From: J061 sp003695725 [NCBI: Candidatus Schekmanbacteria bacterium]
GTDB taxonomy: Bacteria > Schekmanbacteria > GWA2-38-11
Length of the DNA stretch: 15,192 nucleotides
Assembly: GCA_003695725.1 (NCBI GenBank)
Contig: RFHX01000168.1
Location: 1-15,192 of the forward strand
Direction of reading: 5' to 3'
Positions 273-14,922 of this stretch are shown here, one piece after another. The position numbers and the translations under genes are program-made. The first letter of the stretch is position 1, and each line of letters opens with the position of its first letter. The notes beneath the pieces were generated by a model. The model did not search any database. It was given only the letters and a program-made list of their open reading frames with translations, and was not told where the DNA came from.

Positions 273-302
273 TTGAAATCTTGACTTGCGCTTTTTTATC
301 AT
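273..302 (+). promoter_or_regulatory. Sigma70-like promoter for the sugar ABC transporter operon
   Basis: TTGAAA at 273-278 (5 of 6 to the -35 consensus) and TATCAT at 297-302 (5 of 6 to the -10 consensus) are separated by 18 bp. An overlapping alternative is TTGACT at 281-286 with TATAAC at 302-307, but its spacer of 15 bp is short. Either would start the transcript about 4-10 nt before the ATG at 318, giving an almost leaderless message. That agrees with the absence of a Shine-Dalgarno sequence there. Confidence 0.4.
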
Positions 303-317
303 ATAACCAAAACAGTT

Positions 318-1637: not shown

Positions 1638-1720
1638 CTTTTAATATTGAAAAAAAACTCTACTGATTGAATAATTTAAAAATAGATGTAATTTTCCTTT
1701 CCTCGACTCAAAGGTGTAAA

Positions 1721-2623
1721 GTGAAGGGAAGCGTTCTTATTAAGAAGGAAAAGACATTTGCCTTTTTTTTGCTTCTTCCCGCTTTTCTCTTTCTGGCTAT
1801 TTTTTCAATATATCCAATCTTATATTCATTTTTTCTGAGCTTTTTCAAACTATCACTATGGAAAAATATATCAGTCGGCGCATTTGTAGGGTTTGCCAAT
1901 TATACAGCTCTATTAAGAGACAAAATAGCGCTACATTCATTTTTAATAACATTTGCCTTTGTCATTATTACAACTTTTTTCGAAATACTCTTTGGCATAG
2001 TTATAGCGTTAGTTATGCATAACACCTTTAAATGGCGAGGCTTCATCAGAGCTGCAATTTTAATACCATGGGCAATTCCTACAGTCGTCTCCTCTCAAAT
2101 GTGGCGATTTATTTTCAACGACCAGTACGGATTTGCAAACTTTCTTCTTTTTGGTGCTCATACTGATTCATACAAAGCTTGGCTTGCAAATCCTACTCTT
2201 GCTTTTTTTTCAATTGCTGCAGCAGATATATGGAAATCCTCTTCATTTGCGGCTTTGATTATTCTTGCGGGACTTCAGATAATACCTGAAGATTTATATG
2301 AAGCTGCAAAAATCGACGGTGCCAGCAGATGGTATCAATTTATAAAAATCACCCTTCCTCTTCTAAAGCCCACAATACTGGTAGCTTTGCTTTTCAGGAC
2401 TATTGATGCTTTTAGAGTTTTCGACCTCGTTTTTGTAATGACACAGGGAGGGCCCGGTGACGCTACAAATGTATTGCAATTTTACGGTTATAAAAAAATC
2501 TTTGCAGAAGGATTTGTGGGTTATGGTTCCACGATTTCAGTAATAATTTTTTTAATAATTTTTTGTTTGTCCCTTCTTTACATTAGGATGCTTGGAAAAA
2601 CTTTAATGGAAAAAAGACTATGA
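1721..2623 (+). CDS. Carbohydrate ABC transporter permease, MalF/UgpA-like
   Basis: This is an inner-membrane permease subunit of the sugar importer. I chose the GTG at 1721 because AAGGTG lies 4 nt upstream. An upstream TTG at 1667 (318 aa) has no ribosome binding site and would add a non-membrane-like leader. From the GTG the protein is 300 aa with about six hydrophobic segments. The first follows a short KKEK stretch and contains FFLLLPAFLFL, as in MalF/UgpA/ThuF permeases. The ATPase-contacting EAA loop is present near the C-terminal third (EAAKIDGASRWYQFIKITLP). It overlaps the next permease gene by 4 bp (ATGA), which suggests translational coupling and a 1:1 heterodimer. Family assignment is secure; exact sugar is not. 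Confidence 0.9.
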   Translation: MKGSVLIKKEKTFAFFLLLPAFLFLAIFSIYPILYSFFLSFFKLSLWKNISVGAFVGFANYTALLRDKIALHSFLITFAFVIITTFFEILFGIVIALVMHNTFKWRGFIRAAILIPWAIPTVVSSQMWRFIFNDQYGFANFLLFGAHTDSYKAWLANPTLAFFSIAAADIWKSSSFAALIILAGLQIIPEDLYEAAKIDGASRWYQFIKITLPLLKPTILVALLFRTIDAFRVFDLVFVMTQGGPGDATNVLQFYGYKKIFAEGFVGYGSTISVIIFLIIFCLSLLYIRMLGKTLMEKRL

Positions 2624-3444
2624 AAAACATAAGTTACAAGTTGACATTTCTTTTAACTACAGCCGTTGTAGTTTTAGTTAGCATATTCCCTTTTCTCTGG
2701 TTTGTCAGCACATCATTTAAGAGGGAAATAGAAATATCATCTATTCCCCCTATATTCATTCCTTCTTTCAATATGCAATTTTATCAATCAACTATAAGTA
2801 ATTATGATATCTTTCTATACATAAAAAACAGTTTGCTCGTTGCTGGATGCACAACCATCATAACGATATTCATTTCAAGCCTTGCCGGCTATGCTCTTGC
2901 CTGCCTTAAACTCAAGGGGAAAAGATTAATTATGGGCATTATTTTGGCATCATCGATGTTTCCTCAAATCTCAATAGCAGGACCTATCTGGCGCATTCTT
3001 GATTTCTTCGGATGGCTTAACTGCTATCAAGGATTGATTCTGCCATATGTAACTTTAACTCTTCCGTTGGGCATCTGGATACTTGCGTCCTTTTTTGACA
3101 AACTTCCAAAAGAAATCGAAGAAGCGGCAATGATAGATGGATGCAGTCATATTCAGGTGCTTTTAAAAATAATTGCTCCCTTGTCTTTGCCGGGTATATT
3201 CACGGCCTCTATACTTGTTTTCATATATGCATGGAATGAATTCTTCTTTGCTCTTTTAGTTATGACTGAAGAAAAGTATCGCACTCTTCCTGTAGGGATT
3301 GCCCTTTTTCAGGGACAATATACAATGCCTTGGGGAGAAATAGCCGCAGCTTCGACAATAGCTACAATCCCACTGGTAATTTTAGTAATGTTTTTTCAAA
3401 AACAAATAGTATCTGGACTTTCAGCAGGCGCTGTAAAGGAATGA
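2620..3444 (+). CDS. Carbohydrate ABC transporter permease, MalG/UgpE-like
   Basis: This is the second inner-membrane permease subunit of the sugar importer, 274 aa and close to the usual MalG-type length. It has an N-terminal membrane segment (about residues 10-30) followed by the FPFLWFVSTSFK pattern characteristic of MalG-like permeases. Further hydrophobic segments and an EAA loop follow (EEAAMIDGCSHIQVLLKIIAPLSLPG). Its ATG lies inside the stop codon of the upstream permease gene. The MalK-like ATPase begins 6 nt after its stop, so the subunits are made from one message. Only a weak GGAAAA ribosome binding site is visible, consistent with coupled translation. Confidence 0.92.
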   Translation: MKNISYKLTFLLTTAVVVLVSIFPFLWFVSTSFKREIEISSIPPIFIPSFNMQFYQSTISNYDIFLYIKNSLLVAGCTTIITIFISSLAGYALACLKLKGKRLIMGIILASSMFPQISIAGPIWRILDFFGWLNCYQGLILPYVTLTLPLGIWILASFFDKLPKEIEEAAMIDGCSHIQVLLKIIAPLSLPGIFTASILVFIYAWNEFFFALLVMTEEKYRTLPVGIALFQGQYTMPWGEIAAASTIATIPLVILVMFFQKQIVSGLSAGAVKE

Positions 3445-3450
3445 TGATCT

Positions 3451-4533
3451 ATGAATTACTTATTGATCGAAAATATATCGAAATCATTTTCAGATTCATC
3501 AATACTGAAAAAAATAAGTTTCGAAGTCGAAAAAGGAGAGTTTTGTGTAATACTCGGTCCCTCGGGATGTGGTAAAACTACTCTTTTAAAGATTATAGCA
3601 GGCATCGAGCGTCAAGACAGCGGTAAGATCTTCTTGGAAAATGATATTTCAAATATTCCTCCGCAAAGAAGAAATATTGCAATGGTATTTCAAAGCTATG
3701 CCCTTTATCCCCATATGTCAATATTTGAAAATATGGCTTTCCCCTTAAAAATGCAGAAAATGGGAAAAAAAGAAATAGAAGAACGAGTAATTTCCACGGC
3801 AAAACTATTAAAAATAGAGAATCATCTAAAGAAAAAACCCCGACAATTATCAGGAGGAGAGAGACAGCGAGTAGCGCTCGGCAGGGCTATTGTGAGAAAT
3901 CCCAAACTATTTCTTTTTGATGAACCACTTTCGAATCTCGATGCCCGCCTTCGCTCAAAAATGAGAAGAGAAATAATTGACCTCCATAACAAATTACAAA
4001 CCACAATAATCTATGTAACTCATGATCAATTTGAAGCTATGACAATGGCAGACAAGATTATCTTACTCAACAAAGGAGAAATACAACAGATAGGCACTCC
4101 AGATGAACTCTATAATTCACCTAAAAATCTTTTTACAGCACAATTCATAGGCACTCCTGAAATAAATCTTATCGAAGGATATTTAGTGAATGAAGAAGGA
4201 AGATTTTTCTTCAAGAGCGGAAATTTTTCACTGGAAATTGGAACCTCAACGAAACTTAAAGAAATTGAAGGGGAAAAAATAATTATGGGAATACGATCTG
4301 AATCATTTTATATAGACAAAGGAAATATTAGGGGAAAAATAAGAAACTTGGAAAATTTAGGTTCAGAGATCCTTGCATACATCGATATTGAAGGACTCGA
4401 AAAAAAGTTGGTTATTAAATGTCCCAAGCAATTTCAGGGAAAAACGGGAAGCGATATAGCTTTAGACATAAAAATGAAGGAAATCCATTTCTTTAAAGAT
4501 GAAGAAAATGTGTGGTCAGGGTGTAATTCATAG
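3451..4533 (+). CDS. Sugar ABC transporter ATP-binding protein, MalK/UgpC/MsmK-like
   Basis: This is the cytoplasmic ATPase that powers the sugar importer. The 360-aa protein has all nucleotide-binding motifs: Walker A GPSGCGKTT at residues 36-44, Q-loop Gln81, signature LSGGE at 133-137, Walker B LFLFDE at 153-158 and the switch His191. After about residue 235 comes a C-terminal extension of the MalK/TOBE type (OB-fold regulatory domain). Its length matches the MalK subfamily and not short single-domain ATPases. AAAGGA lies about 10 nt before the ATG. Because all four importer genes are present, the system looks complete. Some MalK-like ATPases serve several importers, and that cannot be excluded here. 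Confidence 0.93.
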   Translation: MNYLLIENISKSFSDSSILKKISFEVEKGEFCVILGPSGCGKTTLLKIIAGIERQDSGKIFLENDISNIPPQRRNIAMVFQSYALYPHMSIFENMAFPLKMQKMGKKEIEERVISTAKLLKIENHLKKKPRQLSGGERQRVALGRAIVRNPKLFLFDEPLSNLDARLRSKMRREIIDLHNKLQTTIIYVTHDQFEAMTMADKIILLNKGEIQQIGTPDELYNSPKNLFTAQFIGTPEINLIEGYLVNEEGRFFFKSGNFSLEIGTSTKLKEIEGEKIIMGIRSESFYIDKGNIRGKIRNLENLGSEILAYIDIEGLEKKLVIKCPKQFQGKTGSDIALDIKMKEIHFFKDEENVWSGCNS

Positions 4534-4559
4534 TTTTTTGTTCTTACATAAAAGATGCT

Positions 4560-5516
4560 TTACAAATCATCAGAACCCTTTTTTCCCAAATCATTTTTGT
4601 AATAATCAGGATATAGTTTCTTCGCGCAATCAGGACAGAGCCCATGCGAAAATTTCACATCACTACTTCTTCTCATATATGATTCAAGCATCTGCCATTC
4701 ACCTTTCTCATCCTTGATTTTCTTACACGATGAACATATGGGCAAAATTCCTTCAAGTTGATTGATATGCGCAATACTTTCTTCAAGGGCCGCTATATTT
4801 CTCACAATAAAGCGTCCGAGATAATAAATTATCAGAGCAAAAATAATAAAAAAAAGTATATGAATAATATAGATTCTTTTTAATGCTTCCGATGTGGCAT
4901 TTTGATATGATGTATATGGGAAACTAACACTGAGTCCTCCTCTAACATCGCCTATTTTATAACCTTGTTTCTCATGGCATTTTAGGCAGGATTCTTCAAC
5001 AAGAAGTGGAGCCATATAGCGAAAAATTTCAACCCCCTTTTGATTTGTTACATCAGAAACTTCACTCATACCCTCTTCAAATTTTTTCAGCATCTTAGCT
5101 TCCCATTGATCAGGTTTATTTGAGGGATTCAAAGGTTTTAGGCTGGTCAAGTGAATATGAACTTCGGAATCGTTTTTAAGATATTCCGATATCATTCTTG
5201 TCATATATGCAGGATTTACCTTTGTAAGCTTCATTCCTTCTTTAGTTTCAATATCTCTCAAAGGGTCTTCAAGATACACATTCGGCTGGGAATTTTCCGT
5301 AACAAATATATAAACTCCTCCATGCATAGCATTCCACCGCCGTGCTACGACAAAAGCCTTGAAAAATGCTTGGCCTCTATTTTGTGCAAATGTATGAAAC
5401 TGTTGGCGTGTTTTTTTAACATTGATATAAAGTGAAATTGCATCGACTGTAAAAAACAAGCACAATAGGAAAACAAGATAAATCTTAATGCGGTATTGAG
5501 CTGTACTTTGATTCAT
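4560..5516 (-). CDS. Membrane-bound heme sensor: Tll0287-like (DUF3365) domain plus C-terminal four-cysteine domain
   Basis: The product is 318 aa. A membrane helix (about residues 11-30) is followed by an extracytoplasmic domain that ends in the c-type heme motif CLKCH at 177-181 and then RGGLSVSFPY. This pattern matches the Tll0287-like/DUF3365 family, which binds heme and is often the input domain of sensor proteins. A second helix (about 214-234) leads to a cytoplasmic segment with ILPICSSCKKI and GLCPDC; Cys261, 264, 294 and 297 form a likely metal-binding pair of CxxC motifs. This C-terminal module is commonly found at the ends of PAS and response-regulator proteins, where its role is unclear. 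No kinase, GGDEF or methyl-accepting domain is present, so the output is unknown. The gene is convergent with the ATPase gene and stands alone. No Shine-Dalgarno sequence is seen before the ATG. Confidence 0.82.
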   Translation of the reverse strand: MNQSTAQYRIKIYLVFLLCLFFTVDAISLYINVKKTRQQFHTFAQNRGQAFFKAFVVARRWNAMHGGVYIFVTENSQPNVYLEDPLRDIETKEGMKLTKVNPAYMTRMISEYLKNDSEVHIHLTSLKPLNPSNKPDQWEAKMLKKFEEGMSEVSDVTNQKGVEIFRYMAPLLVEESCLKCHEKQGYKIGDVRGGLSVSFPYTSYQNATSEALKRIYIIHILFFIIFALIIYYLGRFIVRNIAALEESIAHINQLEGILPICSSCKKIKDEKGEWQMLESYMRRSSDVKFSHGLCPDCAKKLYPDYYKNDLGKKGSDDL

Positions 5517-5612
5517 ATTTATTAAAATTCATTTTTTTAAGTTTATTTCTCATTTTAAGACAATAATCAAACATAATAAAGGCATCAGTGGAAGAAAAAA
5601 AAGAGAGGAATA

Positions 5613-5666
5613 ATGGATTTAAGTTTCTGGGAAACAATCAAAATAAATTATAGTATCATTTTATAA
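5613..5666 (+). CDS. Possible 17-codon small ORF with a ribosome binding site
   Basis: In the 207-bp gap between two leftward genes, AGAGAGG sits a few bases before an ATG that opens a 17-codon frame (starting MDLSFWETIK) closed by TAA. The ribosome binding site is better than those of several real genes in the window, but nothing else supports translation and the peptide is unrecognised. It could be the surviving start of a decayed gene, a true small protein, or chance in AT-rich DNA. The rest of the 5517-5723 gap shows no clear terminator or conserved structure. Confidence 0.15.
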   Translation: MDLSFWETIKINYSIIL

Positions 5667-5723
5667 GAAAAACAATAGCACCTATCAATTCAAATAGATG
5701 TCTTGAAGCCCTAAATACTAAAT

Positions 5724-6032
5724 CTAATTCCCCCCACCGATAAGTGAGCCAAAGGAAAGGATGTCTCCTTCTTTCAACTTCGTATTTAGCTTCTCTGGAT
5801 ACTCATATTCATAATCTACAGGCCTGTTGTTTAGATATACATTTGCCCTTTGAACTTTTCCTTCCATTGAATCCATTGTAAGAGTAACCCTTTGTTCAAA
5901 TGCATATCCATATTTCTGGCAGACTATTTTGATTGCATCATTTACCGTAGAGTTTTCAGGAATATCGATTTCTTCTTCGACTTTCTTTGTAATATCGAGT
6001 GTCAAGTTATAGTATCTTACTTTAATCTTCAT
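5724..6032 (-). CDS. MoaD/ThiS-family sulfur carrier protein associated with the AOR
   Basis: This is a 102-aa ubiquitin-fold protein of the MoaD/ThiS type, with a beta-strand start (MKIKVRYYN), the helix-forming NSTVNDAIKIV segment and the hallmark C-terminal glycine tail. MoaD proteins carry a C-terminal thiocarboxylate that supplies the dithiolene sulfurs of molybdopterin/tungstopterin. MoaD-like genes are frequently found beside tungsten AOR genes, as here, so a dedicated role in the pterin cofactor of the neighbouring oxidoreductase is the likely reading. The tail is SLIGGGN, with one residue after the glycines, whereas classic MoaD/ThiS end exactly in GG. Processing or use of a variant activating enzyme would be needed. 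GGGAAG lies about 8 nt before the ATG. No MoaE or MoeB/ThiF partner is in the window. Confidence 0.82.
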   Translation of the reverse strand: MKIKVRYYNLTLDITKKVEEEIDIPENSTVNDAIKIVCQKYGYAFEQRVTLTMDSMEGKVQRANVYLNNRPVDYEYEYPEKLNTKLKEGDILSFGSLIGGGN

Positions 6033-6078
6033 ATGCGACTTCCCACTACTAATTGTTTAATATTTACCTATTGATTCA

Positions 6079-6119
6079 TTAAATAAGAAAGAAAAGGGGA
6101 GAATATTTTTCTCCCCTTT
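6079..6119 (-). terminator. Intrinsic terminator downstream of the AOR gene
   Basis: A perfect 11-bp inverted repeat (AAAGGGGAGAA at 6093-6103 pairing with TTCTCCCCTTT at 6109-6119) encloses a 5-nt loop. On the - strand it is followed by a U-rich run (TTTTCTTTCTTATTT). It begins about 20 nt after the AOR stop codon and lies before the MoaD-like gene. It should therefore end or attenuate the main operon transcript, leaving the MoaD-like gene expressed by read-through or its own promoter. Confidence 0.8.
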
Positions 6120-6138
6120 GTCATCTTCTTTTTTCAAA

Positions 6139-8091
6139 CTACTTTTTCTTCTTTCCGCCTTTTTTGCCTTTATGAAGCTCGATATATTTTTTCCTATACG
6201 GCTTCAATTCTTCGGCAACATCTTCAAGTCCAAGTTCTTTCAGTTTCTTCTCTCCCGGAAATCCTGTCTCAGGGTCATATTCACGCAGTTTGTAGTATTC
6301 AGGGAGCATTTCATCGAGAGGCAGAACCTTACCTGAGCTTGCCGCAGGGTTTTCAGGCATCGGCTCGTGAGTAAATCTTCTTGGCACTGTATCCTCATAT
6401 TTACCACTGAGCATCTTTGCCCAATATGCCCTTTCAAGGTTGTATATTCTCTCACCAATCGTCATCAGCTCATCTTCAGTGAAGTCAAGACCTGTTACTG
6501 CATTTAACATTGGAACAAGGTGTTCGTTTCTGCAGCCATATGACCAGTGGGTGTTGAAACAGCAAACCTGCAAGCTGTCAACAAACGCTTTCTGATTTTC
6601 TTCCCAATAAACCATCTTTGGTTTTCCTGCTGTGACAAGCGGTTTCGAACACTCTTCTGTCCCAACTATCTTCTTGTTGAGTCCAGGATAGAGGTAGCCT
6701 GAAAGTTCAAGACAGCAGAGAGAACGCAAGTGGTCACATCCGCCTCTTGTACCAACTGCAAAGCTAAGCCCGTAGCCGAAACCCAGACCTCTTGGGTCGT
6801 CTCCCGGCAGACTCATACCTCTTGTAACAACGAGACAGTCTTCACCAATACCAAGTTTCTGTGATGCTCTCCATGGACCTTCTGCAAGAATGTCACCAAA
6901 ACCTTCTCTATAGGTCATCATACGGAGAAGTTTATCGACGACTTCTGCATTTCCCCATGTAAGCTCGAGGCCGCCAGTATCTTTAGCTGTCAAGTATCCT
7001 TTCTCCCAGCATTCCATTGCCCAGCTAATTGCGGCTCCAGCTTCAATGGCATCCATTCCAAAATTGTTGGTCAGCACAGCATTGTGCAGAGTCGTTTCTG
7101 AATCGATGATGCCAACTCTTGGTCCTGTCGGCACAGCGGCTTCATATTCAGGTCCGCCTGTATATTCTCCTTTATATTTGCCTTCTCTAATTTCAGAAAC
7201 TATACCACAGCAGATAGCGCAGGAGAAACATCCTTCTTTGTGTCTCAGATGTTTTTTAGACCAAACTTCACCAGAAATGTTTCTTGCATCTGGATGATAT
7301 CCATATTTGAGGTTCTTCCATGGGAACCAACCCATTTCATAGTTACATGGCATAATGAGAATCAAACTGCCGTAGTTGAGAAGGCCCTGTGCCATTGGGT
7401 CGGTGCGCATTGTTTCGCGCCATTCACTGCAAATCTTGAAATATTCTTCCGGATTTGCAATCTTGACGCCGCCTGTTCCCCTAACAGCGATTGCTTTGAT
7501 ATTTTTCGAGCCAATTACAGCACCATGTCCTGTTCTTCCTGCCGCCCTATAACAGTCATTGAATGTGCAGGCAAAACGGACGAGGTTTTCACCGGCAGGT
7601 CCAATTGTTACTATATGAATATCTTTGTCGCCTAATTCTTCCTTGATTATCGCATCAGCATCTCTTGGATACTTTCCCCAAATGTGGGAAGCATCTCTGA
7701 TTTCGATTTTGTCATCATCAATCCAAATATAAGACGGTTTCGGAGCTTTTCCTTCAAGAATAATCTGTTCATAGCCGGCAAACTTCAATTCAGCGCCCCA
7801 GTGTCCGCCCATATTAGAATCACCGAATCCGCCTGTTAAGGGCGATTTTGCGGTAACCGTAACTCTACCTGTTGAAGGTCCAAATGTGCCTGACATAGGA
7901 CCAACGCCAAGACAAACGACATTTTCAGGTGATAATGGGTCAACATCTGGTCCGACGCTGTTATACAAAACTTCGGAATTGTAACCTCTGCCGCCTAACC
8001 ATTTACGCCTATACTCATAAGGTGTTTCCTCAACATCCCAGGTGCCTTTGGTTAAATTGAAACGAATTCTTTTTCCTCTCCATCCATACAT
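6139..8091 (-). CDS. Tungsten/molybdopterin aldehyde:ferredoxin oxidoreductase family protein (AOR large subunit)
   Basis: The family oxidises aldehydes to carboxylic acids, or runs in reverse with low-potential electrons, at a tungsten bis-pterin centre. The 650-aa protein has the N-terminal pterin-binding domain (WLGGRGYNSEVLY, and GPSTGRVTVTAKSPLTGGFG at about 71-90). The [4Fe-4S] ligands are Cys288, Cys291 and Cys295, the same spacing and numbering as the Pyrococcus enzyme, with the fourth in DSLQVC (Cys510). GPEYE (313-317) and His454 in GGCDHLR match conserved active-site regions. The family also includes BamB of class II benzoyl-CoA reductases, which I cannot exclude. An unusual Lys/Gly-rich tail (KGKKGGKKKK) ends the protein. 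The gene follows the small Fe-S subunit by 4 nt, and GGGGAGGG precedes its ATG. Substrate is not predictable. Confidence 0.93.
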   Translation of the reverse strand: MYGWRGKRIRFNLTKGTWDVEETPYEYRRKWLGGRGYNSEVLYNSVGPDVDPLSPENVVCLGVGPMSGTFGPSTGRVTVTAKSPLTGGFGDSNMGGHWGAELKFAGYEQIILEGKAPKPSYIWIDDDKIEIRDASHIWGKYPRDADAIIKEELGDKDIHIVTIGPAGENLVRFACTFNDCYRAAGRTGHGAVIGSKNIKAIAVRGTGGVKIANPEEYFKICSEWRETMRTDPMAQGLLNYGSLILIMPCNYEMGWFPWKNLKYGYHPDARNISGEVWSKKHLRHKEGCFSCAICCGIVSEIREGKYKGEYTGGPEYEAAVPTGPRVGIIDSETTLHNAVLTNNFGMDAIEAGAAISWAMECWEKGYLTAKDTGGLELTWGNAEVVDKLLRMMTYREGFGDILAEGPWRASQKLGIGEDCLVVTRGMSLPGDDPRGLGFGYGLSFAVGTRGGCDHLRSLCCLELSGYLYPGLNKKIVGTEECSKPLVTAGKPKMVYWEENQKAFVDSLQVCCFNTHWSYGCRNEHLVPMLNAVTGLDFTEDELMTIGERIYNLERAYWAKMLSGKYEDTVPRRFTHEPMPENPAASSGKVLPLDEMLPEYYKLREYDPETGFPGEKKLKELGLEDVAEELKPYRKKYIELHKGKKGGKKKK

Positions 8092-8095
8092 ATTA

Positions 8096-8581
8096 TTAGC
8101 CCTCCCCTTTTAACTTAGCAATTACGTCATCAGCAAGTGCACGCCTGCGGTGCCTTACTGTTAGCTCAAGAGGTGCATATTCGAGACATTTGGTTGGGCA
8201 ATGTTTTACACACATCGGGTCGCCGCCGCAAAGATTGCACTTATATGCTTTTCCTGTTCTGTAGCTAATTCCTGCAGCGCCAAAAGGACATGCCCTTACA
8301 CATGCCTTGCAACCAACGCAAATTTCTTCATTGATTAATCCCGTTCCCAATTCCGGGTCAATGGAGTTTGCGCCAGTTGGACAAACTTCTACGCACACTG
8401 GTTTCGAACAGAGGGCACAGCCAACAGGGAAGCTATCTCCAATAGCTTCGTTCCTTACAACCCGGATTCTTGAAAGAGACGGACTGCACTCTTTCTCATT
8501 ATAAAGAGAACAAGCCATCTCACAAGTTCTGCAACCCGAACACTTTTCCGGATTGATCATAATAAACTTGGTTTGTTCCAT
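8096..8581 (-). CDS. Four-cluster ferredoxin-like electron-transfer subunit (HycB/AorA/BamC type)
   Basis: This is a 161-aa iron-sulfur protein with four CxxCx(2-4)CxxxC-type sets: Cys14/17/20/24, 55/58/63/67, 88/91/94/98 and 115/118/124/128. This arrangement is that of the HycB/DmsB-like electron-transfer family, whose members act as the small subunit of AORs (AorA) and of BamBC. It should wire the pterin enzyme encoded 4 nt downstream to the HdrA-MvhD protein or to ferredoxin. Two additional cysteines (32 and 132) are not part of the motifs. There is no signal peptide, so a cytoplasmic location is expected. GGGGGA precedes the ATG. The 116-bp gap upstream is the widest within the operon core. 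Confidence 0.92.
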   Translation of the reverse strand: MEQTKFIMINPEKCSGCRTCEMACSLYNEKECSPSLSRIRVVRNEAIGDSFPVGCALCSKPVCVEVCPTGANSIDPELGTGLINEEICVGCKACVRACPFGAAGISYRTGKAYKCNLCGGDPMCVKHCPTKCLEYAPLELTVRHRRRALADDVIAKLKGEG

Positions 8582-8697
8582 ATTATCGATCCCCCTTCAA
8601 ATTAGATTGGAAATTTCAATGTTGGAAAAACATTTAGGTGAAACTTATTATTCTATCTTCTACTGTCTCACCTCCCTTCTTTTTTGAATAAAAAATT

Positions 8698-11124
8698 TTA
8701 TGAAAGTGCTTTAACTTTTTCAGTCATTCTCTTTGCTATGTCAAGAAATTTTCTTTGGTCAGAAATAGCTGTTGTAAAATATTCCAATCTCTCTTTTTCG
8801 ATCCCAATAGAATCCAAAAGTTTCTTTCCAAATTCAACTTGTGAAACCATATAATCCTTACCGTTTTTAAAGTGACATGTAGCACAACCGCCAACAATTA
8901 CGCCATCTGCCCCACATTCGAAAGATTTGAAAATATCAAACAAGGAAACCTTCCCTGCACAGGGCACACCCAATGGAAGGATATTGGGTGGATATTTTAT
9001 CTTCTTCAACCCTACAAGGTCAACAGCCGCATATGCACATTCAAGGCAAAGGAATGTAAGTATTTTGGGTTTGATATCAGCAGAACGAATTATTTCTTCA
9101 ATCTGGGAGATAAAATTCTCTTCTCTGTAATTTCCTGCCCAAATAGCTCCTGTTGGACAAAATGCTGAACATTGTCCACAATTGACGCATTTCACCGGAT
9201 TCACTTCAGGTGTTTCCAAAATATCTATTGCTGTAAATTCTTCTTTAGTTTCGACTGCTCTCACAGGACAAACATTTACACATATTCCACATTTGATACA
9301 AAGCTCTTCATCTATCTTAGCGCACATAATTTCCTTTACAGCTTTCTGCTTCTTAATCTGCGATATTGCTTTTGCTGCCGCCGCACTTCCCTGTGCAATA
9401 GAAAGAGGAATATTCTTTGGTCCTGTTACGGAGCCTGCCGCATAAATTCCTTTCAACGATGTTTCAGTGGCGCGGTTTTTCCCGTAATATTCCCTGATAA
9501 AACCATATTCATTCAAATCAAGACAGGAAACCTCTGATAATTTATCAGTCCCTTTTGCAGGACGCAGAGCACTGGAAAGGACGACAAGGTCAGCTTCAAG
9601 AAGAAGGTCGCGATTCATTGTAATGTCCTCAACCTCAACGAGAAGATTCGCAGTTTCCGGGATTTCTTCAATTCTCGAAGGGCGACCCTTTACGAAATTG
9701 ACCCATTTATCACGAGCTTCGATATAATATTTTTCAAAATTTCCGGGAGTCCTTATATCGATATAACAAATCGTTACCTCGGCGTCTGTTTTTTCTTTTA
9801 TCAAAATGGCATGTTTGATAGCAAAAAGGCAGCATACTTCAGAGCAATATTCATTATAATTGCTGTCACGCGACCCAACGCACTGTATCATAACAATATT
9901 TTTTGCTTCTTTTCCATCCGATGGCCTTATAAGTTTACCTTCAGTATGCCCTTCCGGATTAAGCAGATGCCCTAATTCATGCTGAGTAATCACATTTTGA
10001 TATCTTCCAAAGCCATACTCAGTTACTGCATTTGGCTTAAACTCGCTTATACCGGTAGCAATAACTACAGCACCAGCATTAAACAACTCATTCCTTTTTG
10101 TATCATTAAGATTTATTGCCTTAGTTGGGCAGATATCTTCACATTCTCTGCATCCCTCTCTGCAATTTTCCCTATCAATCAAATATGCCCGTGGAATTGC
10201 TTGAGGCCATGGAAGATAAGCGGCTTTTCGCGAAACCGTTGAATAATGTTTCCGTTTGATACCATCAACAGGACATACTTCTTCGCATTTTCCACAAAGA
10301 ATGCATCTTTCAACATCCACATAACGCGGTTCAACTTCAGCAGAAATTTGAAAATTCCCGGGTTCTCCTTTTATTCCTGTAATATTCGTTCCAGTAAGTA
10401 TTTTAAGATTAGGCTGATTGTCGATTCTACTCCTGTAAAGGCATTTTCTGCAAACTTCAAGATTCTCAACATCAAGAAAAGCTGTGCACAAGCCGCAGTC
10501 ATTTGTAGGTGCAACAATCCCTAACTTCATCGCCATTCCGCCAAGAAAGTGCTTTTTTTCAAGAAGTATTGTTTTGATTCCGGCTTCAGCCAACTCAAAG
10601 GATGCAGCTATTCCGGCAGGTCCTGCACCAATTACTACGGCTTCATTTGAGATTTGGCGGCTTTCTTTTCTATTTTCTTCTGATGCCTCTATGCTTCTTG
10701 CAGCCGTCTTAATCATTGCGAGAGCTTTTCTCGTGGCATTTTTAGGATCATCCGAATGAGGCCAGGCACATCCCTCTCTCAAATTGACTATCTCGTAAAA
10801 GTTTCTACTAATACCTGCTCTTTCAAGCCCTTCTTTGAATATCTTTCCTATGCTCTGAGGGGAGCAGGCAGAAATTACAAATTTCTCTATAAACTCACTT
10901 TTAACCTTGTCAGCTATAAATTTTATACCCTCTTTCTGACAAAGAGCATTATGTATAACCACACTTTTGAATGTATTGTCAGTTTGTATGCTTTCAACAA
11001 TTTTTTCAATATCTATTGTCTTGGAAATTTCATCAGCACAGGTACATATGAATAAGGCAAGTTCTTTTTCTTCTGTGGTTGGTTCTTTTACAAAATCTTC
11101 TTTTCCTGCTTTTTTATTCACCAC
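8698..11124 (-). CDS. HdrA-MvhD fusion: FAD and polyferredoxin electron-transfer subunit
   Basis: This cytoplasmic flavin/iron-sulfur hub is 808 aa from a GTG at 11124. I prefer the GTG because AGGGAAG lies just upstream. A TTG at 11163 would add 13 residues, has no ribosome binding site and would overlap the previous gene by 50 bp. From the GTG, the order is: an HdrA N-terminal cysteine domain; the FAD dinucleotide fold (GAGPAG, about 166-171); inserted ferredoxin clusters at Cys274/277/280/284 and 321/325/328/332; and the HdrA flavin-proximal cysteine set CVGSR...CSEVCC with IKHA (about 415-438). Two more ferredoxin motifs follow (609-619 and 646-656), then an MvhD/FlpD-like domain with CLEC, PCAG and GGCATC. 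HdrA is the flavin-based bifurcating subunit of heterodisulfide reductases, and MvhD normally links it to a hydrogenase. Neither HdrB/C nor a hydrogenase is encoded here, so the AOR is the probable partner. Confidence 0.92.
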   Translation of the reverse strand: MVNKKAGKEDFVKEPTTEEKELALFICTCADEISKTIDIEKIVESIQTDNTFKSVVIHNALCQKEGIKFIADKVKSEFIEKFVISACSPQSIGKIFKEGLERAGISRNFYEIVNLREGCAWPHSDDPKNATRKALAMIKTAARSIEASEENRKESRQISNEAVVIGAGPAGIAASFELAEAGIKTILLEKKHFLGGMAMKLGIVAPTNDCGLCTAFLDVENLEVCRKCLYRSRIDNQPNLKILTGTNITGIKGEPGNFQISAEVEPRYVDVERCILCGKCEEVCPVDGIKRKHYSTVSRKAAYLPWPQAIPRAYLIDRENCREGCRECEDICPTKAINLNDTKRNELFNAGAVVIATGISEFKPNAVTEYGFGRYQNVITQHELGHLLNPEGHTEGKLIRPSDGKEAKNIVMIQCVGSRDSNYNEYCSEVCCLFAIKHAILIKEKTDAEVTICYIDIRTPGNFEKYYIEARDKWVNFVKGRPSRIEEIPETANLLVEVEDITMNRDLLLEADLVVLSSALRPAKGTDKLSEVSCLDLNEYGFIREYYGKNRATETSLKGIYAAGSVTGPKNIPLSIAQGSAAAAKAISQIKKQKAVKEIMCAKIDEELCIKCGICVNVCPVRAVETKEEFTAIDILETPEVNPVKCVNCGQCSAFCPTGAIWAGNYREENFISQIEEIIRSADIKPKILTFLCLECAYAAVDLVGLKKIKYPPNILPLGVPCAGKVSLFDIFKSFECGADGVIVGGCATCHFKNGKDYMVSQVEFGKKLLDSIGIEKERLEYFTTAISDQRKFLDIAKRMTEKVKALS

Positions 11125-11731
11125 TTTCTTTCTTCCCTGATATTTCGGAAGCTGTTCTGCCAATCAAGATTGAAAGTCTTGGCACAGCTTCATATGCTGT
11201 TCTCCATTTTCTACACTTCTGACAAAAATCAAGTTCACTATGGATATGTGATTCTTCTTCAAGAATTTTTTTAAGCTTTTCTATTGCCGCCTTAGGCCCA
11301 ACAGGTCTTTTGCACTGGACACAAAGGATAAGCTCTGCTTCCTTCTTTAATTCAAGAGAGCCTTCAAAGAAAGTTTTTAGATTTAGGCCCGGATTTGCTT
11401 TTATTGCATCATCATCACAACTCTTTTCGCACTTCCTGCAGCCTACGCATATCTGCATTTTATGGTAGATATACCTTACGCCGTCTTTGTCATCAACTTC
11501 TATTGCTCCTGTTGGACAAATTTCAGCACAGGCGCCACAAGCAATACATTTATCTTTGTCTATTTCAATCGAGCCGCCAAAATAGATATTTCTGTCAGCT
11601 TCAATAAAGGAATCTTGCCACTTTTTCCCTTTTCTTTTGCGAAGAGAAGTAAGCAGTTCTCCTAATTTTTCTCTATTTTCGAGGCGTTTCTCTTCAACAC
11701 GCCTAACCTTCAAATCAAATTTATATTTCAT
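11114..11731 (-). CDS. 2x[4Fe-4S] ferredoxin-domain protein with two extra CxxC pairs (HycF/NuoI-like)
   Basis: This is a 205-aa electron-transfer protein. A basic N-terminal segment is followed by two canonical [4Fe-4S] sets (Cys62/65/68/72 in CIACGACAEICP, and Cys95/98/101/105). A C-terminal part carries two further pairs, Cys137/140 and Cys170/173, 29 residues apart, which could hold a zinc or rubredoxin-like iron. The layout resembles HycF/HyfH subunits of formate hydrogenlyase complexes and NuoI relatives, but that is a pattern judgement. It lies 12 nt after the acyl-CoA synthetase gene and overlaps the start of the HdrA-MvhD gene by 11 bp, which points to coupled translation and membership of the same complex. 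The ribosome binding site is weak. Confidence 0.85.
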   Translation of the reverse strand: MKYKFDLKVRRVEEKRLENREKLGELLTSLRKRKGKKWQDSFIEADRNIYFGGSIEIDKDKCIACGACAEICPTGAIEVDDKDGVRYIYHKMQICVGCRKCEKSCDDDAIKANPGLNLKTFFEGSLELKKEAELILCVQCKRPVGPKAAIEKLKKILEEESHIHSELDFCQKCRKWRTAYEAVPRLSILIGRTASEISGKKESGE

Positions 11732-11743
11732 ACGCTTTTGAAA

Positions 11744-13330
11744 TTAGCTTTTCTTCTCATACTTTTCAAGTTCTCTTTTCTTCAAAATATTCTTCTGAAT
11801 CTTTCCAATTGATGTCTTTGGAAATTCCTTCACAACTTCTATGAATTCAGGCACTTTGAACTTTGCCAGCCGCTCAGCACAGAATGCTTTCACTTCATCA
11901 GCAGTTACCGACATCCCCTCTTTTAACAAAATGAATGCTTTTACAGCCCAATCCCGCATTTCATCAGGAACTCCTATCACAGCGGCTTCCACTATAGCAG
12001 GATGCTCTGTCAAAACTCTTTCAACTTCTTGTGCGGCAATGTTTTCCCCTGCTCTTTTAATTACATCCTTCTTTCTATCTATAAAGTACACATAGCCATC
12101 CTCATCCATCTTGCCATAATCGCCTGTATAGAACCAGTTATTCTCATCAAGCACTTCTGCTGTAGCTTCAGGGTTCTTATAATACCCCTTCATCAATTGA
12201 ATTCCGGGTGTGCCATGGACTGCTATTTCACCTACCTCACCAATGGGGACTTCATTCCTATTATCATCAACTATCTTTATCTCAACACCAAATGTTGGTA
12301 ATCCCACAGACCCCCTCTTTCTCTTTGCGTGCATACAGGTAAATGTGCAGGGTGCCAATGTTTCTGTAAGGCCATAAAGGTCGTGAAGTGTCGTGTTGAA
12401 GCGCGTTTCAAATTCATCCCATTGCTCGTCAGTAATAGCAATAGCAAAGCAGATTCTTCTCATTTTATGGTCCCTGTCAAAAGGAGTGCGCGGCTGTGCG
12501 AGAAGCTGTCTCACATTTGTAGCAACTAAACTTGTTATCGTTGCCCCATATTCCCTAACATATTTGAAGAAACGAGAAGCGCTGAATCTTTCACATATTA
12601 TAATGCTCGCTCCAGCAGTTATAGTAGGCATAAAGGAAATATACTGGGCATTTACATGGAAGAGAGGAAGGACGCAAATATGTCTGTCTTCTGTAGTCAA
12701 CTTCTGCTCGCAAGCCATCGTTTCTCCAATCCAAAGGGAATTTCCGTGAGTTAGAAGAACCCCTTTGGGCCTTGCCGTTGTTCCTGATGTATAAAGCATA
12801 TTAGAAACATCCATAGGTCCCACATCAACGATTTCTTTCAATTCATCAGGGTATTCCTTCAAAATATCATTTAAGAGCAAAACCCCTTCGGGCGCCTCTT
12901 CTGCCCTATATAAAATTATGTTTTTAAGATTAGGACATTTCCCTTTGATGCTATCTATCATCTCCATATATTCAGGATCCGTTATAATTGTGCCTGATTC
13001 TGAATGATTAAGCATATACTCCATCTCATCGGGGCGTGACATAATGTTAGTTGGAATCATTATTGCACCAATTTTGGAGGTGGCAAACCATGTCAGACAA
13101 AAGCCTGTAGAATTTGGAAGATGGCAGGTTACGAAATCTCCTTTCTTAATGCCCAAATCAAGAAGAGCATTAGCAAGCTTATTAACTTTTTTATTGAACT
13201 CTTTGTAAGTCAGTGTTTCTACATTATCATTTTTATCTATGAAAATTATAAAATCCTTGTCCGGTTTGTCTTCTGCCTGAAACTCTAAAAGTTTTCTTAA
13301 ATTTTTGTTTCTTCCTATAATAATGCTCAT
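11744..13330 (-). CDS. AMP-forming acyl-CoA synthetase (CaiC-like adenylate-forming ligase)
   Basis: This enzyme activates a carboxylic acid to its acyl-CoA through an acyl-adenylate, using ATP. The 528-aa length is usual for the ANL superfamily, and all core motifs are present: phosphate loop YTSGTTARPKG at 180-190, YGLTET at 319-324, TGD at 402-404, hinge DRK at 418-420 and catalytic Lys510 in SIGKIQ. The overall pattern, with the short N-terminus and NIMSRPDEMEYML region, resembles carnitine/crotonobetaine-CoA ligase (CaiC)-like enzymes, but substrate specificity cannot be read from this. GGAGGTCAGG precedes the ATG. Placed between the dehydrogenase and the redox module, it could consume the acid formed by the AOR, or supply a CoA-bound substrate if the AOR is BamB-like. 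Confidence 0.93.
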   Translation of the reverse strand: MSIIIGRNKNLRKLLEFQAEDKPDKDFIIFIDKNDNVETLTYKEFNKKVNKLANALLDLGIKKGDFVTCHLPNSTGFCLTWFATSKIGAIMIPTNIMSRPDEMEYMLNHSESGTIITDPEYMEMIDSIKGKCPNLKNIILYRAEEAPEGVLLLNDILKEYPDELKEIVDVGPMDVSNMLYTSGTTARPKGVLLTHGNSLWIGETMACEQKLTTEDRHICVLPLFHVNAQYISFMPTITAGASIIICERFSASRFFKYVREYGATITSLVATNVRQLLAQPRTPFDRDHKMRRICFAIAITDEQWDEFETRFNTTLHDLYGLTETLAPCTFTCMHAKRKRGSVGLPTFGVEIKIVDDNRNEVPIGEVGEIAVHGTPGIQLMKGYYKNPEATAEVLDENNWFYTGDYGKMDEDGYVYFIDRKKDVIKRAGENIAAQEVERVLTEHPAIVEAAVIGVPDEMRDWAVKAFILLKEGMSVTADEVKAFCAERLAKFKVPEFIEVVKEFPKTSIGKIQKNILKKRELEKYEKKS

Positions 13331-13416: not shown

Positions 13417-14181
13417 CTATTTACCTAAAATTTGCCCGCCATCAACTACAAGCACTGCGCCAGTAGTGAAATCCGATGCAGGTGATGCAAAATAGACAAC
13501 AGAACCGATTAGCTCTTCAGGTTCGCCAAGCCGCTTCATTGGCAGTGTTTTTTCAATGACTCTTTTGCCTGCTTCAGAAGCAAAAAATTCTTCATTCATC
13601 GGCGTCCTAATATAGCCGGGACATACGGCATTCACCTGAATATTGTATTTCACCCACTCAAGGGCTAAAACTTTTGTAAACTGCACTAACCCTGCTTTGC
13701 TAGCGCTGTAAGATGTCATATTTGGAATTGCCATCTGATAAGTAATTGACGAAATGTTTATAACCTTGCCGCGCCTCTGTTTTGCCATATGAGCACCAAT
13801 CGCCTTTGAGCAAAGAAAAGGACCACGCAGGTTGACTGACATTACCCATTCCCAATAGTCAAGGTCCATTTTCAGCACGGGTTTATCTCCGCTTACTCCT
13901 GAATTGTTGACAAGTATATCAACCTTACCAAAATGTTTTATTGTTTTCTCTGCCATTGCATTAACTTGCTCTTCCTTAGAAACATCCGTTGGCACAGGCA
14001 ATGCTTTTCTTCCTCTTTTCTCAATCTCATCAGCAACTTTTTCAAGGTCTGAAAGTGTGCGAGCAACTAATACTACATCACAACCAAACTCAGAAAGTCC
14101 AATCGCAAGTGCTTTACCTATACCTTTACCTGCTCCTGTCACTACTGCCACTTTTCCTTCAAGGTCAAATATATTTTTCAT
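13417..14181 (-). CDS. Short-chain dehydrogenase/reductase (classical SDR, FabG-like)
   Basis: This is an NAD(P)-dependent oxidoreductase of 254 aa, the standard length for classical SDRs. Motifs seen are the nucleotide-binding TGAGKGIG at 15-22, NNSG at 92-95 (a variant of NNAG), Asn117, Ser144/145, and the catalytic Tyr158 and Lys162 in YSASK. A C-terminal GAVLVVDGG closes the fold. Arg41 in the LVAR segment after beta-2 hints at NADPH preference, but weakly. Candidate substrates are an alcohol or 3-hydroxyacyl compound linked to the neighbouring ligase and AOR. AAGGG precedes the ATG. The 57-bp gap to the upstream acyltransferase gene shows no terminator, so it is probably in the same operon. 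Confidence 0.92.
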   Translation of the reverse strand: MKNIFDLEGKVAVVTGAGKGIGKALAIGLSEFGCDVVLVARTLSDLEKVADEIEKRGRKALPVPTDVSKEEQVNAMAEKTIKHFGKVDILVNNSGVSGDKPVLKMDLDYWEWVMSVNLRGPFLCSKAIGAHMAKQRRGKVINISSITYQMAIPNMTSYSASKAGLVQFTKVLALEWVKYNIQVNAVCPGYIRTPMNEEFFASEAGKRVIEKTLPMKRLGEPEELIGSVVYFASPASDFTTGAVLVVDGGQILGK

Positions 14182-14238: not shown

Positions 14239-14922
14239 CTATCCTATAGCACTGGGATTTTCCAACAATTCCTTTATTCTTCCTAAACATTTTGCCGCCG
14301 GCAAACCGTCCACAATGCGGTGGTCAAAAACCAAAGAAGCATACATATTGAGCTGTGAAACAATATTTCCCTCTCCATCAACGACAGGACGCCTGATTGC
14401 TTTGCCTACTCCTAATATTGCGCACTGCGGGAAATTTATAATTGGTGTAAAAAGCTCAATCCCAGCACCACCAAGATTAGTAATCGTAAAAGTACCTCCT
14501 GTAAGTAGGTCGGGAGTTCTTTCTCCATTGCGGACTCTCTCAACTACCTCCGCCCTTTTTGCGGCAACATCTGGCAAACTTAGAGTATCAGCTTCAGGAA
14601 TCACAGGAGTAATCAATCCATCATCGAGGGCAACTGCAAAAGCAATATTTACATTATCAAAGACAAGAATTTCTTCTCCGATTACTGCTGAATTAAGAAT
14701 TGGAAATTCTTTCAGTGCCAATGCGCAGGAGCGAATAATAAGGTCGTTTATTGTCACACCTTCAGACTTTTTTGAATCTGCACATTTTTTAGCTTCTTCC
14801 ATATTGATTAGGACTATTTCTGCAACACGAGGTGCACTAGTCCAGCTTTGAGTCATTTTTTTAGCAATGCGGGCGCGCATACCTTTGAGGGGAATTTTCT
14901 CTTTAATTTTAGGTTCTATCAA
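14239..14922 (-). CDS. Stand-alone 2-oxoacid dehydrogenase acyltransferase (E2) catalytic domain
   Basis: This is a 227-aa protein corresponding to only the chloramphenicol-acetyltransferase-fold catalytic domain of E2 enzymes. It begins directly at the IPLKGMRARIAKKM element that usually follows the peripheral-subunit-binding domain. TFTITNLG (144-151) and the catalytic DHRIVDG with His201 and Asp205 are intact. No lipoyl or subunit-binding domain is present, and no E1 or E3 gene is adjacent, so it cannot be a normal 2-oxoacid dehydrogenase core by itself. It may transfer acyl groups between CoA and another carrier. The start is a TTG, well supported by AGGAGG at 14929-14934 with 6-nt spacing; a downstream ATG (codon 15) would cut into the domain. 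It is first in the operon. Confidence 0.87.
   Translation of the reverse strand: MIEPKIKEKIPLKGMRARIAKKMTQSWTSAPRVAEIVLINMEEAKKCADSKKSEGVTINDLIIRSCALALKEFPILNSAVIGEEILVFDNVNIAFAVALDDGLITPVIPEADTLSLPDVAAKRAEVVERVRNGERTPDLLTGGTFTITNLGGAGIELFTPIINFPQCAILGVGKAIRRPVVDGEGNIVSQLNMYASLVFDHRIVDGLPAAKCLGRIKELLENPSAIG

What the first reader, a model, noticed from the sequence alone, without database searches (positions are those of the whole stretch)
6139..11731. AOR wired to an HdrA-MvhD fusion and two polyferredoxin subunits
Four tightly spaced genes encode an AOR-family catalytic subunit, a four-cluster small subunit, an HdrA-MvhD fusion and an extra 2x[4Fe-4S] protein. No HdrB/HdrC, hydrogenase, formate dehydrogenase or NAD-binding (NuoF/NfnB) subunit appears in the window. 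Known AOR complexes use ferredoxin or an NAD-reducing flavoprotein; Bam complexes add HdrA/MvhD-like parts to an AOR relative. This looks like a reduced Aor-Hdr complex that could couple aldehyde/acid chemistry to two acceptors. Because aldehyde oxidation already has a very low potential, the HdrA part may instead serve acid reduction.
Basis: partly seen in the sequence, partly recalled or inferred. Interest (0 to 1): 0.65.

Follow-up and report, generated by a model that had tools for sequence, protein, structure and literature searches.

The report
Aldehyde enzyme wired to Hdr flavoprotein
In a little-known group of uncultured bacteria, a tungsten-type aldehyde-oxidising enzyme sits in a conserved gene cluster next to a flavin protein best known from methane-making microbes; the pair probably drains electrons from an aldehyde made while breaking down some still unidentified compound.

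Summary
On the minus strand lie AOR (6139-8091), a HycB/WorS-type subunit (8096-8581), an HdrA-MvhD fusion (8698 to about 11121) and a 205-aa iron-sulfur protein (11114-11731). The order recurs in all 4 genomes of the order that the search returned (Candidatus Schekmanbacteria), within a larger, catabolic-looking unit. Elsewhere AOR-HycB relatives stand without HdrA (1 of 72 AOR loci has one), and 0 of 34 HdrA neighbourhoods hold an AOR. The 205-aa protein is HycF-like, with the tail cysteine quartet that in E. coli formate hydrogenlyase lies beside HycB. This gives a plausible wire: AOR, HycB, HycF-like, HdrA-MvhD. Coupling to two acceptors is only partly supported: of two residues tied to bifurcation, the lysine is kept, but the glutamate is Gly/Ala in 4 of 4 (Glu in 26 of 27 controls). 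The neighbours favour aldehyde oxidation over acid reduction. The published WOR classes I-V, as far as read, have no such composition: a new variant of a known kind. Complex formation, substrate and direction are inferred; both structure models were too poor to use.

The parts
14239..14922 (-). E2 catalytic domain only (2-oxoacid dehydrogenase acyltransferase, no lipoyl domain found); first gene of the conserved unit
   Evidence: conserved in 4 of 4 genomes
13417..14181 (-). Short-chain dehydrogenase/reductase (SDR)
   Evidence: conserved 4 of 4
11744..13330 (-). AMP-forming acyl-CoA ligase (closest NCBIfam model CaiC-type, below its cut-off)
   Evidence: conserved 4 of 4, 79-83% identity
11114..11731 (-). 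HycF-like iron-sulfur protein: 2x[4Fe-4S] plus C-terminal Cys quartet C137/C140/C170/C173
   Evidence: HycF quartet in PMC9474812
8698..11121 (-). HdrA-MvhD fusion (HdrA2 / type Ia): FAD and 4Fe-4S domains, MvhD cysteines C692/C695/C721/C746/C749; K436 kept, E356-equivalent is G384; extra C224/C227. Probable GTG start (11121 or 11124)
8096..8581 (-). HycB/WorS-type [4Fe-4S] small subunit (18 cysteines, 16 in a four-cluster pattern)
   Evidence: best PDB matches are chains of AOR complexes 9mqx and 8c0z; cysteines read from the sequence
6139..8091 (-). AOR / WorL catalytic subunit (tungsten-type aldehyde oxidoreductase)
6093..6119 (-). Terminator-like stem between AOR and the ThiS/MoaD-like gene
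   Evidence: 11 pairs; 11 terminator-like sites found against 7.4 +/- 2.1 in shuffles, so weak
5724..6032 (-). ThiS/MoaD-like protein (WorX of the WOR literature)
   Evidence: WorX in PMC13328260; present after AOR in 3 of 3 genomes where the contig continues

Best explanation
The four genes encode a Hdr-linked tungsten-type aldehyde oxidoreductase. AOR (WorL) oxidises an aldehyde to its acid. Electrons leave through the four clusters of the HycB/WorS subunit, cross to the HycF-like 205-aa protein, whose cysteine-quartet tail would dock on HycB as in formate hydrogenlyase, and enter the HdrA-MvhD flavoprotein, which passes them to ferredoxin or another soluble partner. The layout copies formate hydrogenlyase, with AOR in place of formate dehydrogenase and HdrA-MvhD in place of the hydrogenase. 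It serves a conserved catabolic gene set in Schekmanbacteria; a fitting pathway is alcohol or ketol oxidation (SDR, Zn-ADH), E1/lipoyl/E2 cleavage, aldehyde oxidation by AOR and acid activation by the acyl-CoA ligase. HdrA probably works as a linear electron adaptor rather than a full bifurcating site. Shown: gene content, conserved order, cysteine motifs, the missing glutamate. Inferred: physical complex, electron path, direction, substrate.
For: Same order in 4 of 4 genomes, from 4 genera, window proteins at 50-91% identity. In the window the 205-aa gene overlaps HdrA, and HycB and AOR are 4 nt apart. HycF-like cysteine quartet aligned with E. coli HycF, whose tail touches HycB (PMC9474812, passages). 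AOR closest to P. furiosus AOR and to chains of WOR complexes. The small subunit's best matches are small subunits of AOR complexes. Catabolic-looking neighbours. K409-equivalent kept in 4 of 4; E356-equivalent Gly/Ala in 4 of 4 against Glu in 26 of 27 controls. No [NiFe] hydrogenase seen: the one PF00374 match in each of the 4 genomes covers 70-77 of 508 positions, and the one examined (G000) is a NuoD.
Against: HdrA-HycB gap of 116, 153, 204 and 247 nt in the four genomes (ORF coordinates), and a 9-of-12 promoter-like site at 8723-8695 before HycB, so they could be two units. The 205-aa/HdrA genes are not tight everywhere either: about 139 nt apart in G003. HycB/AOR are slow (82-91% identity) and HdrA/205-aa fast (50-70%), as if two pairs. 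Nearest AOR-HycB pairs elsewhere do without HdrA. The HycF resemblance is modest (26% identity) and the same quartet occurs in an unrelated locus (L155). Loss of one glutamate does not prove loss of bifurcation; 87 of 401 archaeal HdrA in PMC12054007 lack it. The acceptor beyond HdrA is unknown.
Confidence: 0.47

Rival explanations
1. Two separate units in one operon. AOR-HycB is an ordinary class II WOR (WorLS) that reduces free ferredoxin, and HdrA-MvhD with the 205-aa protein serves another step of the pathway, such as the acyl-CoA dehydrogenase or the E1/lipoyl/E2 system.
For: Closest AOR relatives are HycB-AOR pairs without HdrA in the DNA held (tree). Gap of 116-247 nt before HycB and a promoter-like site at 8723-8695. 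Different conservation of the two pairs. The gene set holds an acyl-CoA dehydrogenase, and no EtfAB or E3 was recognised among the genes scanned.
Against: HdrA/205-aa sit immediately before HycB-AOR in 4 of 4 genomes, also in G001, where the E1 module lies elsewhere on the contig. The HycF-like protein has the tail expected to meet a HycB partner. E3 is encoded elsewhere in 4 of 4 genomes.
Confidence: 0.28
2. A true bifurcating or confurcating Aor-Hdr complex: the HdrA flavin splits or merges electrons between aldehyde (or acid) and two carriers, with MvhD as a third port.
For: HdrA2 (HdrA-MvhD) of Methanosarcina acetivorans bifurcates with HdrB2C2 (PMC5296606, passages). K409-equivalent kept in 4 of 4. 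Class IV WORs use a bifurcating partner, which makes aldehyde oxidation favourable at low aldehyde (PMC13328260, passages). MvhD cysteines complete in 4 of 4.
Against: The glutamate that positions the lysine is Gly/Ala in 4 of 4, Glu in 26 of 27 controls. No NAD, F420, H2 or heterodisulfide module recognised in the unit.
Confidence: 0.17
3. The complex runs in reverse and reduces a carboxylic acid to an aldehyde with low-potential electrons supplied through HdrA.
For: AORs can reduce acids with low-potential donors (PMC9295118, abstract in the search listing). The Bam complex has an HdrA-type part proposed to supply low-potential electrons (PMC9304861, passages).
Against: Neighbours look catabolic: acyl-CoA ligase, acyl-CoA dehydrogenase, enoyl-CoA hydratase, E1/E2. 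No module recognised that would feed the HdrA.
Confidence: 0.06

Closest known systems
Class II WOR (WorLS), such as P. furiosus ASOR (PMC13328260, passages)
   Same: AOR large subunit and four-cluster small subunit; ThiS-like gene nearby
   Different: Here HdrA-MvhD and a HycF-like gene are adjacent in 4 of 4 genomes
Class IV WOR (WorLSABC) of Acetomicrobium mobile and Eubacterium limosum
   Same: WorLS joined to a flavin module
   Different: That module is WorABC (NuoEFG-like, recalled); none was found here
[quoted passage not shown]
   Same: AOR relative plus [4Fe-4S] small subunit plus HdrA-like parts
   Different: AOR here is closer to P. furiosus AOR (474 bits) than to BamB (205 bits); no BamGHI-like and no HdrB/C-like gene found
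HdrA2B2C2 of Methanosarcina acetivorans and type Ia HdrA
   Same: HdrA fused to MvhD; flavin lysine; MvhD cysteines
   Different: No HdrB/C in the unit; glutamate lost; two extra cysteines C224, C227
E. coli formate hydrogenlyase (FdhF-HycB-HycF-HycGE)
   Same: Catalytic pterin subunit, four-cluster HycB, HycF with cysteine quartet
   Different: AOR replaces FdhF; HdrA-MvhD replaces the hydrogenase; no membrane subunits in the unit
Eubacteriaceae bacterium Nt197P3bin63 AOR locus (L115)
   Same: AOR, HycB-like and an HdrA-MvhD fusion in one neighbourhood
   Different: Also an NAD/FAD-type oxidoreductase; glutamate kept; AOR only 36% identical

Membership tests
Tungsten-containing oxidoreductase (WOR/AOR) family | AFOR_N and AFOR_C domains over the full length | tested here: met
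   257 and 380 bits
Tungsten-containing oxidoreductase (WOR/AOR) family | Cluster cysteines of the large subunit | tested here: met
   C288, C291, C295, C510, C511 invariant in A1; their role as ligands is recalled from P. furiosus AOR
Tungsten-containing oxidoreductase (WOR/AOR) family | Bound tungsten and aldehyde oxidation | not testable with these tools
   needs protein
Class II WOR (WorLS) | WorL plus four-cluster WorS | tested here: met
Class II WOR (WorLS) | No further subunits; ferredoxin as carrier | tested here: inconclusive
   HdrA-MvhD and HycF-like genes adjacent in 4 of 4; physical association not tested
Class IV WOR (WorLSABC) | WorA, WorB, WorC | tested here: not met
   no such domain in the 13 window genes scanned
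Class II benzoyl-CoA reductase (Bam) | BamB-type large subunit | tested here: not met
   the other eight solved WOR sequences listed all score above BamB
Class II benzoyl-CoA reductase (Bam) | BamGHI (WorABC homologues) | tested here: not met
HdrA2 / type Ia HdrA (HdrA-MvhD fusion) | HdrA FAD/4Fe-4S core fused to MvhD | tested here: met
   (below the NCBIfam HdrA2 cut-off, 658 of 1100 bits)
Bifurcating HdrA | K409-equivalent lysine | tested here: met
   4 of 4; 27 of 27 controls
Bifurcating HdrA | E356-equivalent glutamate | tested here: not met
   Gly/Ala in 4 of 4; Glu in 26 of 27 controls
Bifurcating HdrA | Flavin with crossed one-electron potentials | not testable with these tools
   needs protein
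HycF-type ferredoxin | Two 4Fe-4S motifs plus C-terminal CxxC...CxxC quartet | tested here: met

The most novel reading that the evidence does not exclude
HdrA-MvhD is a redox hub for two inputs. It takes aldehyde electrons through AOR, HycB and the HycF-like protein, and also re-oxidises the stand-alone lipoyl protein of the cluster's own split E1/lipoyl/E2 system, doing the job of E3 with its unusual extra cysteines (C224, C227). That would be an Hdr-type replacement for dihydrolipoamide dehydrogenase merged with a sixth WOR class.
Probability: 0.07. Interest if true: 0.82.

Novelty: new variant of a known kind. Interest (0 to 1): 0.5.

Why it matters
WORs have been sorted into five classes by partner subunits (PMC13328260), and WorLS with HdrA-MvhD and no WorABC is not described in the passages read. 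If real, it shows that a HycB/HycF-type relay, as in formate hydrogenlyase, can plug an aldehyde enzyme into an HdrA flavoprotein, and it offers a natural test of which residues make an HdrA bifurcate. The 18-gene set around it, with a split lipoyl protein and unknown cysteine-containing proteins, points to an undescribed anaerobic pathway in uncultured bacteria.

Tried and rejected
Bam membership: rejected on the large-subunit score and the missing BamGHI. The genome's second AOR-Hdr neighbourhood (contig C8, L036) first looked Bam-like to me (note); its AOR also scores higher to 1aor than to BamB, and similar Hdr sets without AOR are common among the loci, so the adjacency may be chance. Absence of E3 from the cluster as proof of an Hdr-type E3: rejected, because E3 is encoded elsewhere in 4 of 4 genomes, and no E3 was recognised beside the other E1/E2 locus (C271) either, where I tested one neighbour, an aspartase-like lyase. 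Identifying the 275-aa protein by PDB profile search: two hits, E 0.13 and 0.43, nothing credible. Structure prediction of the 205-aa protein (mean pLDDT 36.5, 2 sequences) and of HdrA-MvhD (46.7, 3 sequences): too poor; no fold search was run. Search of viral contigs with HdrA: no relative. Substrate of E1: E1alpha and E1beta match pyruvate-type models best (E1beta also), which does not tell acetoin from 2-oxoacids; the acetoin/butanediol idea stays a guess. The alignment contained wrong-strand rows and was replaced. Literature: I saw no AOR-HycB-HdrA-MvhD unit among the titles and abstract starts listed, which are only part of the hits (25 of 184, 20 of 79, 0 of 0, 6 of 6, 8 of 8, 12 of 68; one search was on Schekmanbacteria, 20 of 40). 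Most subscription papers are not held: the review of HdrA modules by Appel et al. 2021 could not be read and may already list such modules; supplementary tables of PMC13328260 were not seen.
Full report
OBSERVATION. The window is a whole contig (C168, 15192 bases) of a 2.77-Mb genome in 374 contigs. Domain searches agree. The mechanical HdrA start (TTG 11163) is probably wrong: GTG at 11121 or 11124 follows a purine-rich stretch and overlaps the end of the 205-aa gene. The 13 window genes scanned show no HdrB/C, hydrogenase, formate dehydrogenase or NuoF/NfnB-like domain; the other ORFs overlap these genes and were not scanned.

THE UNIT IS LARGER. Upstream on the same strand lie an acyl-CoA ligase, an SDR and an E2 acyltransferase catalytic domain; downstream lies a ThiS/MoaD-like gene, called WorX in the WOR literature (PMC13328260, passages). 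The order E2-SDR-ligase-205aa-HdrA/MvhD-HycB-AOR occurs also in the three other genomes of the order that the relatives search returned (60 genomes, 386). The ThiS-like gene follows in 2 of those 3; in the third the contig stops after AOR. So the seven-gene order is seen in 4 of 4 genomes, from 4 genera. Identities to the window: AOR 87-91%, HycB 82-91%, ligase 79-83%, SDR 69-81%, E2 58-73%, HdrA 55-69%, 205-aa 50-70%.

WIDER GENE SET. In G002 and G003 the unit is continuous with E1alpha, E1beta, a stand-alone lipoyl protein (79 and 84 aa) and a 275-aa cysteine-containing protein without family match. In G001 the same E1-E1-lipoyl-275aa module lies about 18 kb away on the same contig in the other orientation; in the window's genome it is on contig C275. 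Beside it are a Zn-alcohol dehydrogenase, a nitrilase-type hydrolase, two 190-aa proteins (one with an ATC_hydrolase match below the cut-off), an acyl-CoA dehydrogenase and an enoyl-CoA hydratase, seen in 3 of 3 genomes whose contigs reach that far (G002's contig ends after E1alpha). E1alpha and E1beta match pyruvate-type models best (E1beta). E3 is encoded elsewhere in 4 of 4 genomes. The whole looks catabolic. My guess at the pathway is alcohol or ketol oxidation, E1/lipoyl/E2 cleavage that gives an acyl-CoA and an aldehyde (as acetoin dehydrogenase does; recalled), aldehyde oxidation by AOR, and activation of the acid by the ligase. The substrate is not identified.

THE AOR. Its best solved relatives are P. 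furiosus AOR (1aor, 474 bits; organism recalled), 9mqx (433), 9g7j (399) and 8c0z (380); BamB scores 205. A scan of one genome for each of 84,980 species with the AOR alignment gave 73 loci, one of them G003 itself. The scan only reaches AORs that carry one of two short peptides (NMGGHWG, YIWIDDD), so it is not a census. In a FastTree of 81 AORs of 560 aa or more, midpoint-rooted, the Schekmanbacteria sequences form one clade of 4 (support 1.0) inside a clade of 14 (support 1.0) with ten AORs from records labelled Deltaproteobacteria, Proteobacteria or Thermodesulfobacteriota; deeper nodes fall to 0.58 and 0.02. Those relatives (L078-L087, also L088-L091) have HycB and AOR but no HdrA and no 205-aa protein in the DNA held, although several contigs are short. 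Over the 72 other loci, 44 have a HycB-like gene somewhere in the stretch and 1 has a comparable HdrA (L115, Eubacteriaceae: AOR, HycB, an NAD/FAD-type oxidoreductase and HdrA-MvhD). From the other side, HdrA matches (E up to 1e-100) were found in 80 of 386 genomes. I fetched 34 neighbourhoods, not all of them fused to MvhD, from 30 of the 76 positive genomes outside the order; 0 of 34 held an AOR. The 205-aa protein gave matches over its length only in the 4 Schekmanbacteria among 386 genomes, with 2 partial matches elsewhere (73 and 77 bits).

THE WIRE. The 205-aa protein aligns with E. coli HycF over 140 residues (26% identity, E 5e-12). All 8 ferredoxin cysteines and the tail quartet C137, C140, C170, C173 are matched; the quartet also occurs in the partial match L155 from another genome, so it is a feature of a wider HycF-like group. 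In the formate hydrogenlyase structure the HycF tail carries such a quartet (Cys117, 120, 155, 158) with one metal ion and interacts with HycB; the ion itself is not thought to lie on the electron path (PMC9474812, passages). The parts list therefore reads catalytic pterin subunit, four-cluster HycB, HycF, then a second redox enzyme; here that is HdrA-MvhD in place of the hydrogenase. This is an inference from sequence, not a structure.

THE HDRA. The lysine that holds flavin N5 (K409 in Methanothermococcus thermolithotrophicus) and the glutamate that positions it (E356) were proposed to tell bifurcating from non-bifurcating HdrA; in that survey 61 and 87 of 401 archaeal sequences lacked them (PMC12054007, passages). 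I placed them by the alignment to 5odc chain A and by a multiple alignment with 27 other HdrA sequences with MvhD fused or next to them. The lysine is kept in 31 of 31. The glutamate is Gly, Gly, Ala, Ala in the four Schekmanbacteria and Glu in 26 of 27 controls; the exception, L178, is the best HdrA match outside the order. The four also carry two extra cysteines (C224, C227) after the usual CxxC of this region; L178 has one of the two. All five MvhD cysteines are kept in the four, and aligned in 26 of 27 controls. So full bifurcation is doubtful, but not excluded.

AGAINST MY READING. The gap between HdrA and HycB is 116, 153, 204 and 247 nt in the four genomes (ORFs), and in G003 the 205-aa gene and HdrA are about 139 nt apart. 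A promoter-like site (9 of 12) lies at 8723-8695 before HycB; the region has 32 such sites against 23.0 +/- 5.4 in shuffles, so this is weak; no minus-strand terminator-like site lies in the gap. HycB/AOR and HdrA/205-aa differ in conservation as two pairs would. AOR-HycB clearly can exist without HdrA. Hence the 0.28 given to the two-unit rival (raised by 0.01, and my own reading lowered by 0.01, after the spacing and promoter facts were added in checking).

KNOWN OR NEW. The published WOR classification has five classes: WorL; WorLS; WorLSN; WorLSABC (with Bam); membrane types (PMC13328260, abstract and passages). None is described as WorLS plus HdrA-MvhD and a HycF-like protein, although its table notes that some members of the complex classes have additional subunits, and its supplement was not seen. 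HdrA modules with varied partners are known (PMC5296606, PMC9304861, PMC6895022, passages), so the principle is not new. Verdict: a new variant of a known kind, conserved in the four genomes seen of one uncultured order, with function inferred.

Noticed in passing
L036 (contig C8 of the window's genome), 274-10432: A second AOR-family gene lies directly before HdrC, HdrB, two HdrA, MvhD and a large HdrA/NAD-type protein; in G001 the matching Hdr cluster (L058, L171) has no AOR recognised beside it.
   Followed up: partly
L054 5662-6546, L053 4557-5390, L034 15568-16398, L035 9540-10271: A 275-aa protein with CGSGG, CSHC and WFGHP motifs and no credible Pfam, NCBIfam or PDB match; matched in 5 of 386 genomes, three places in G035.
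   Followed up: partly
L034 16650-16889, L035 8974-9228, L053 5391-5654, L054 6504-6743: Stand-alone lipoyl domain protein of about 80 aa next to E1beta in 4 of 4 genomes, with an E2 that lacks a lipoyl domain.
   Followed up: partly
L115 9986-17882: Eubacteriaceae locus with AOR, HycB, an NAD/FAD-type oxidoreductase and HdrA-MvhD: an apparently independent AOR-Hdr association, with the bifurcation glutamate kept.
   Followed up: partly
L204 (G286:C210) 5721-8081: HdrA-MvhD relative that also lacks the E356-equivalent (Gly) and has an altered cysteine region, in a cluster with two more HdrA, HdrB and HdrC: may define an HdrA subtype together with the Schekmanbacteria ones.
   Followed up: no
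L180-L203 (several): Many HdrA genes of other genomes carry an in-frame stop, listed mostly as one TGA, at the second Cys of the CSIC motif, as expected for selenocysteine.
   Followed up: no
G000, nine places incl. C71, C312, C351, C8, C268, C6, C373, C130: The window's genome has nine AFOR_N matches over the cut-off, so many AOR-family genes in 2.8 Mb.
   Followed up: partly
window 318-4533 (+) and 4560-5516 (-): An ABC transporter (binding protein, two permeases, ATPase with MalK-type OB fold) and a Tll0287-domain protein of unknown role; a relative of the latter also lies near the operon in G001.
   Followed up: no
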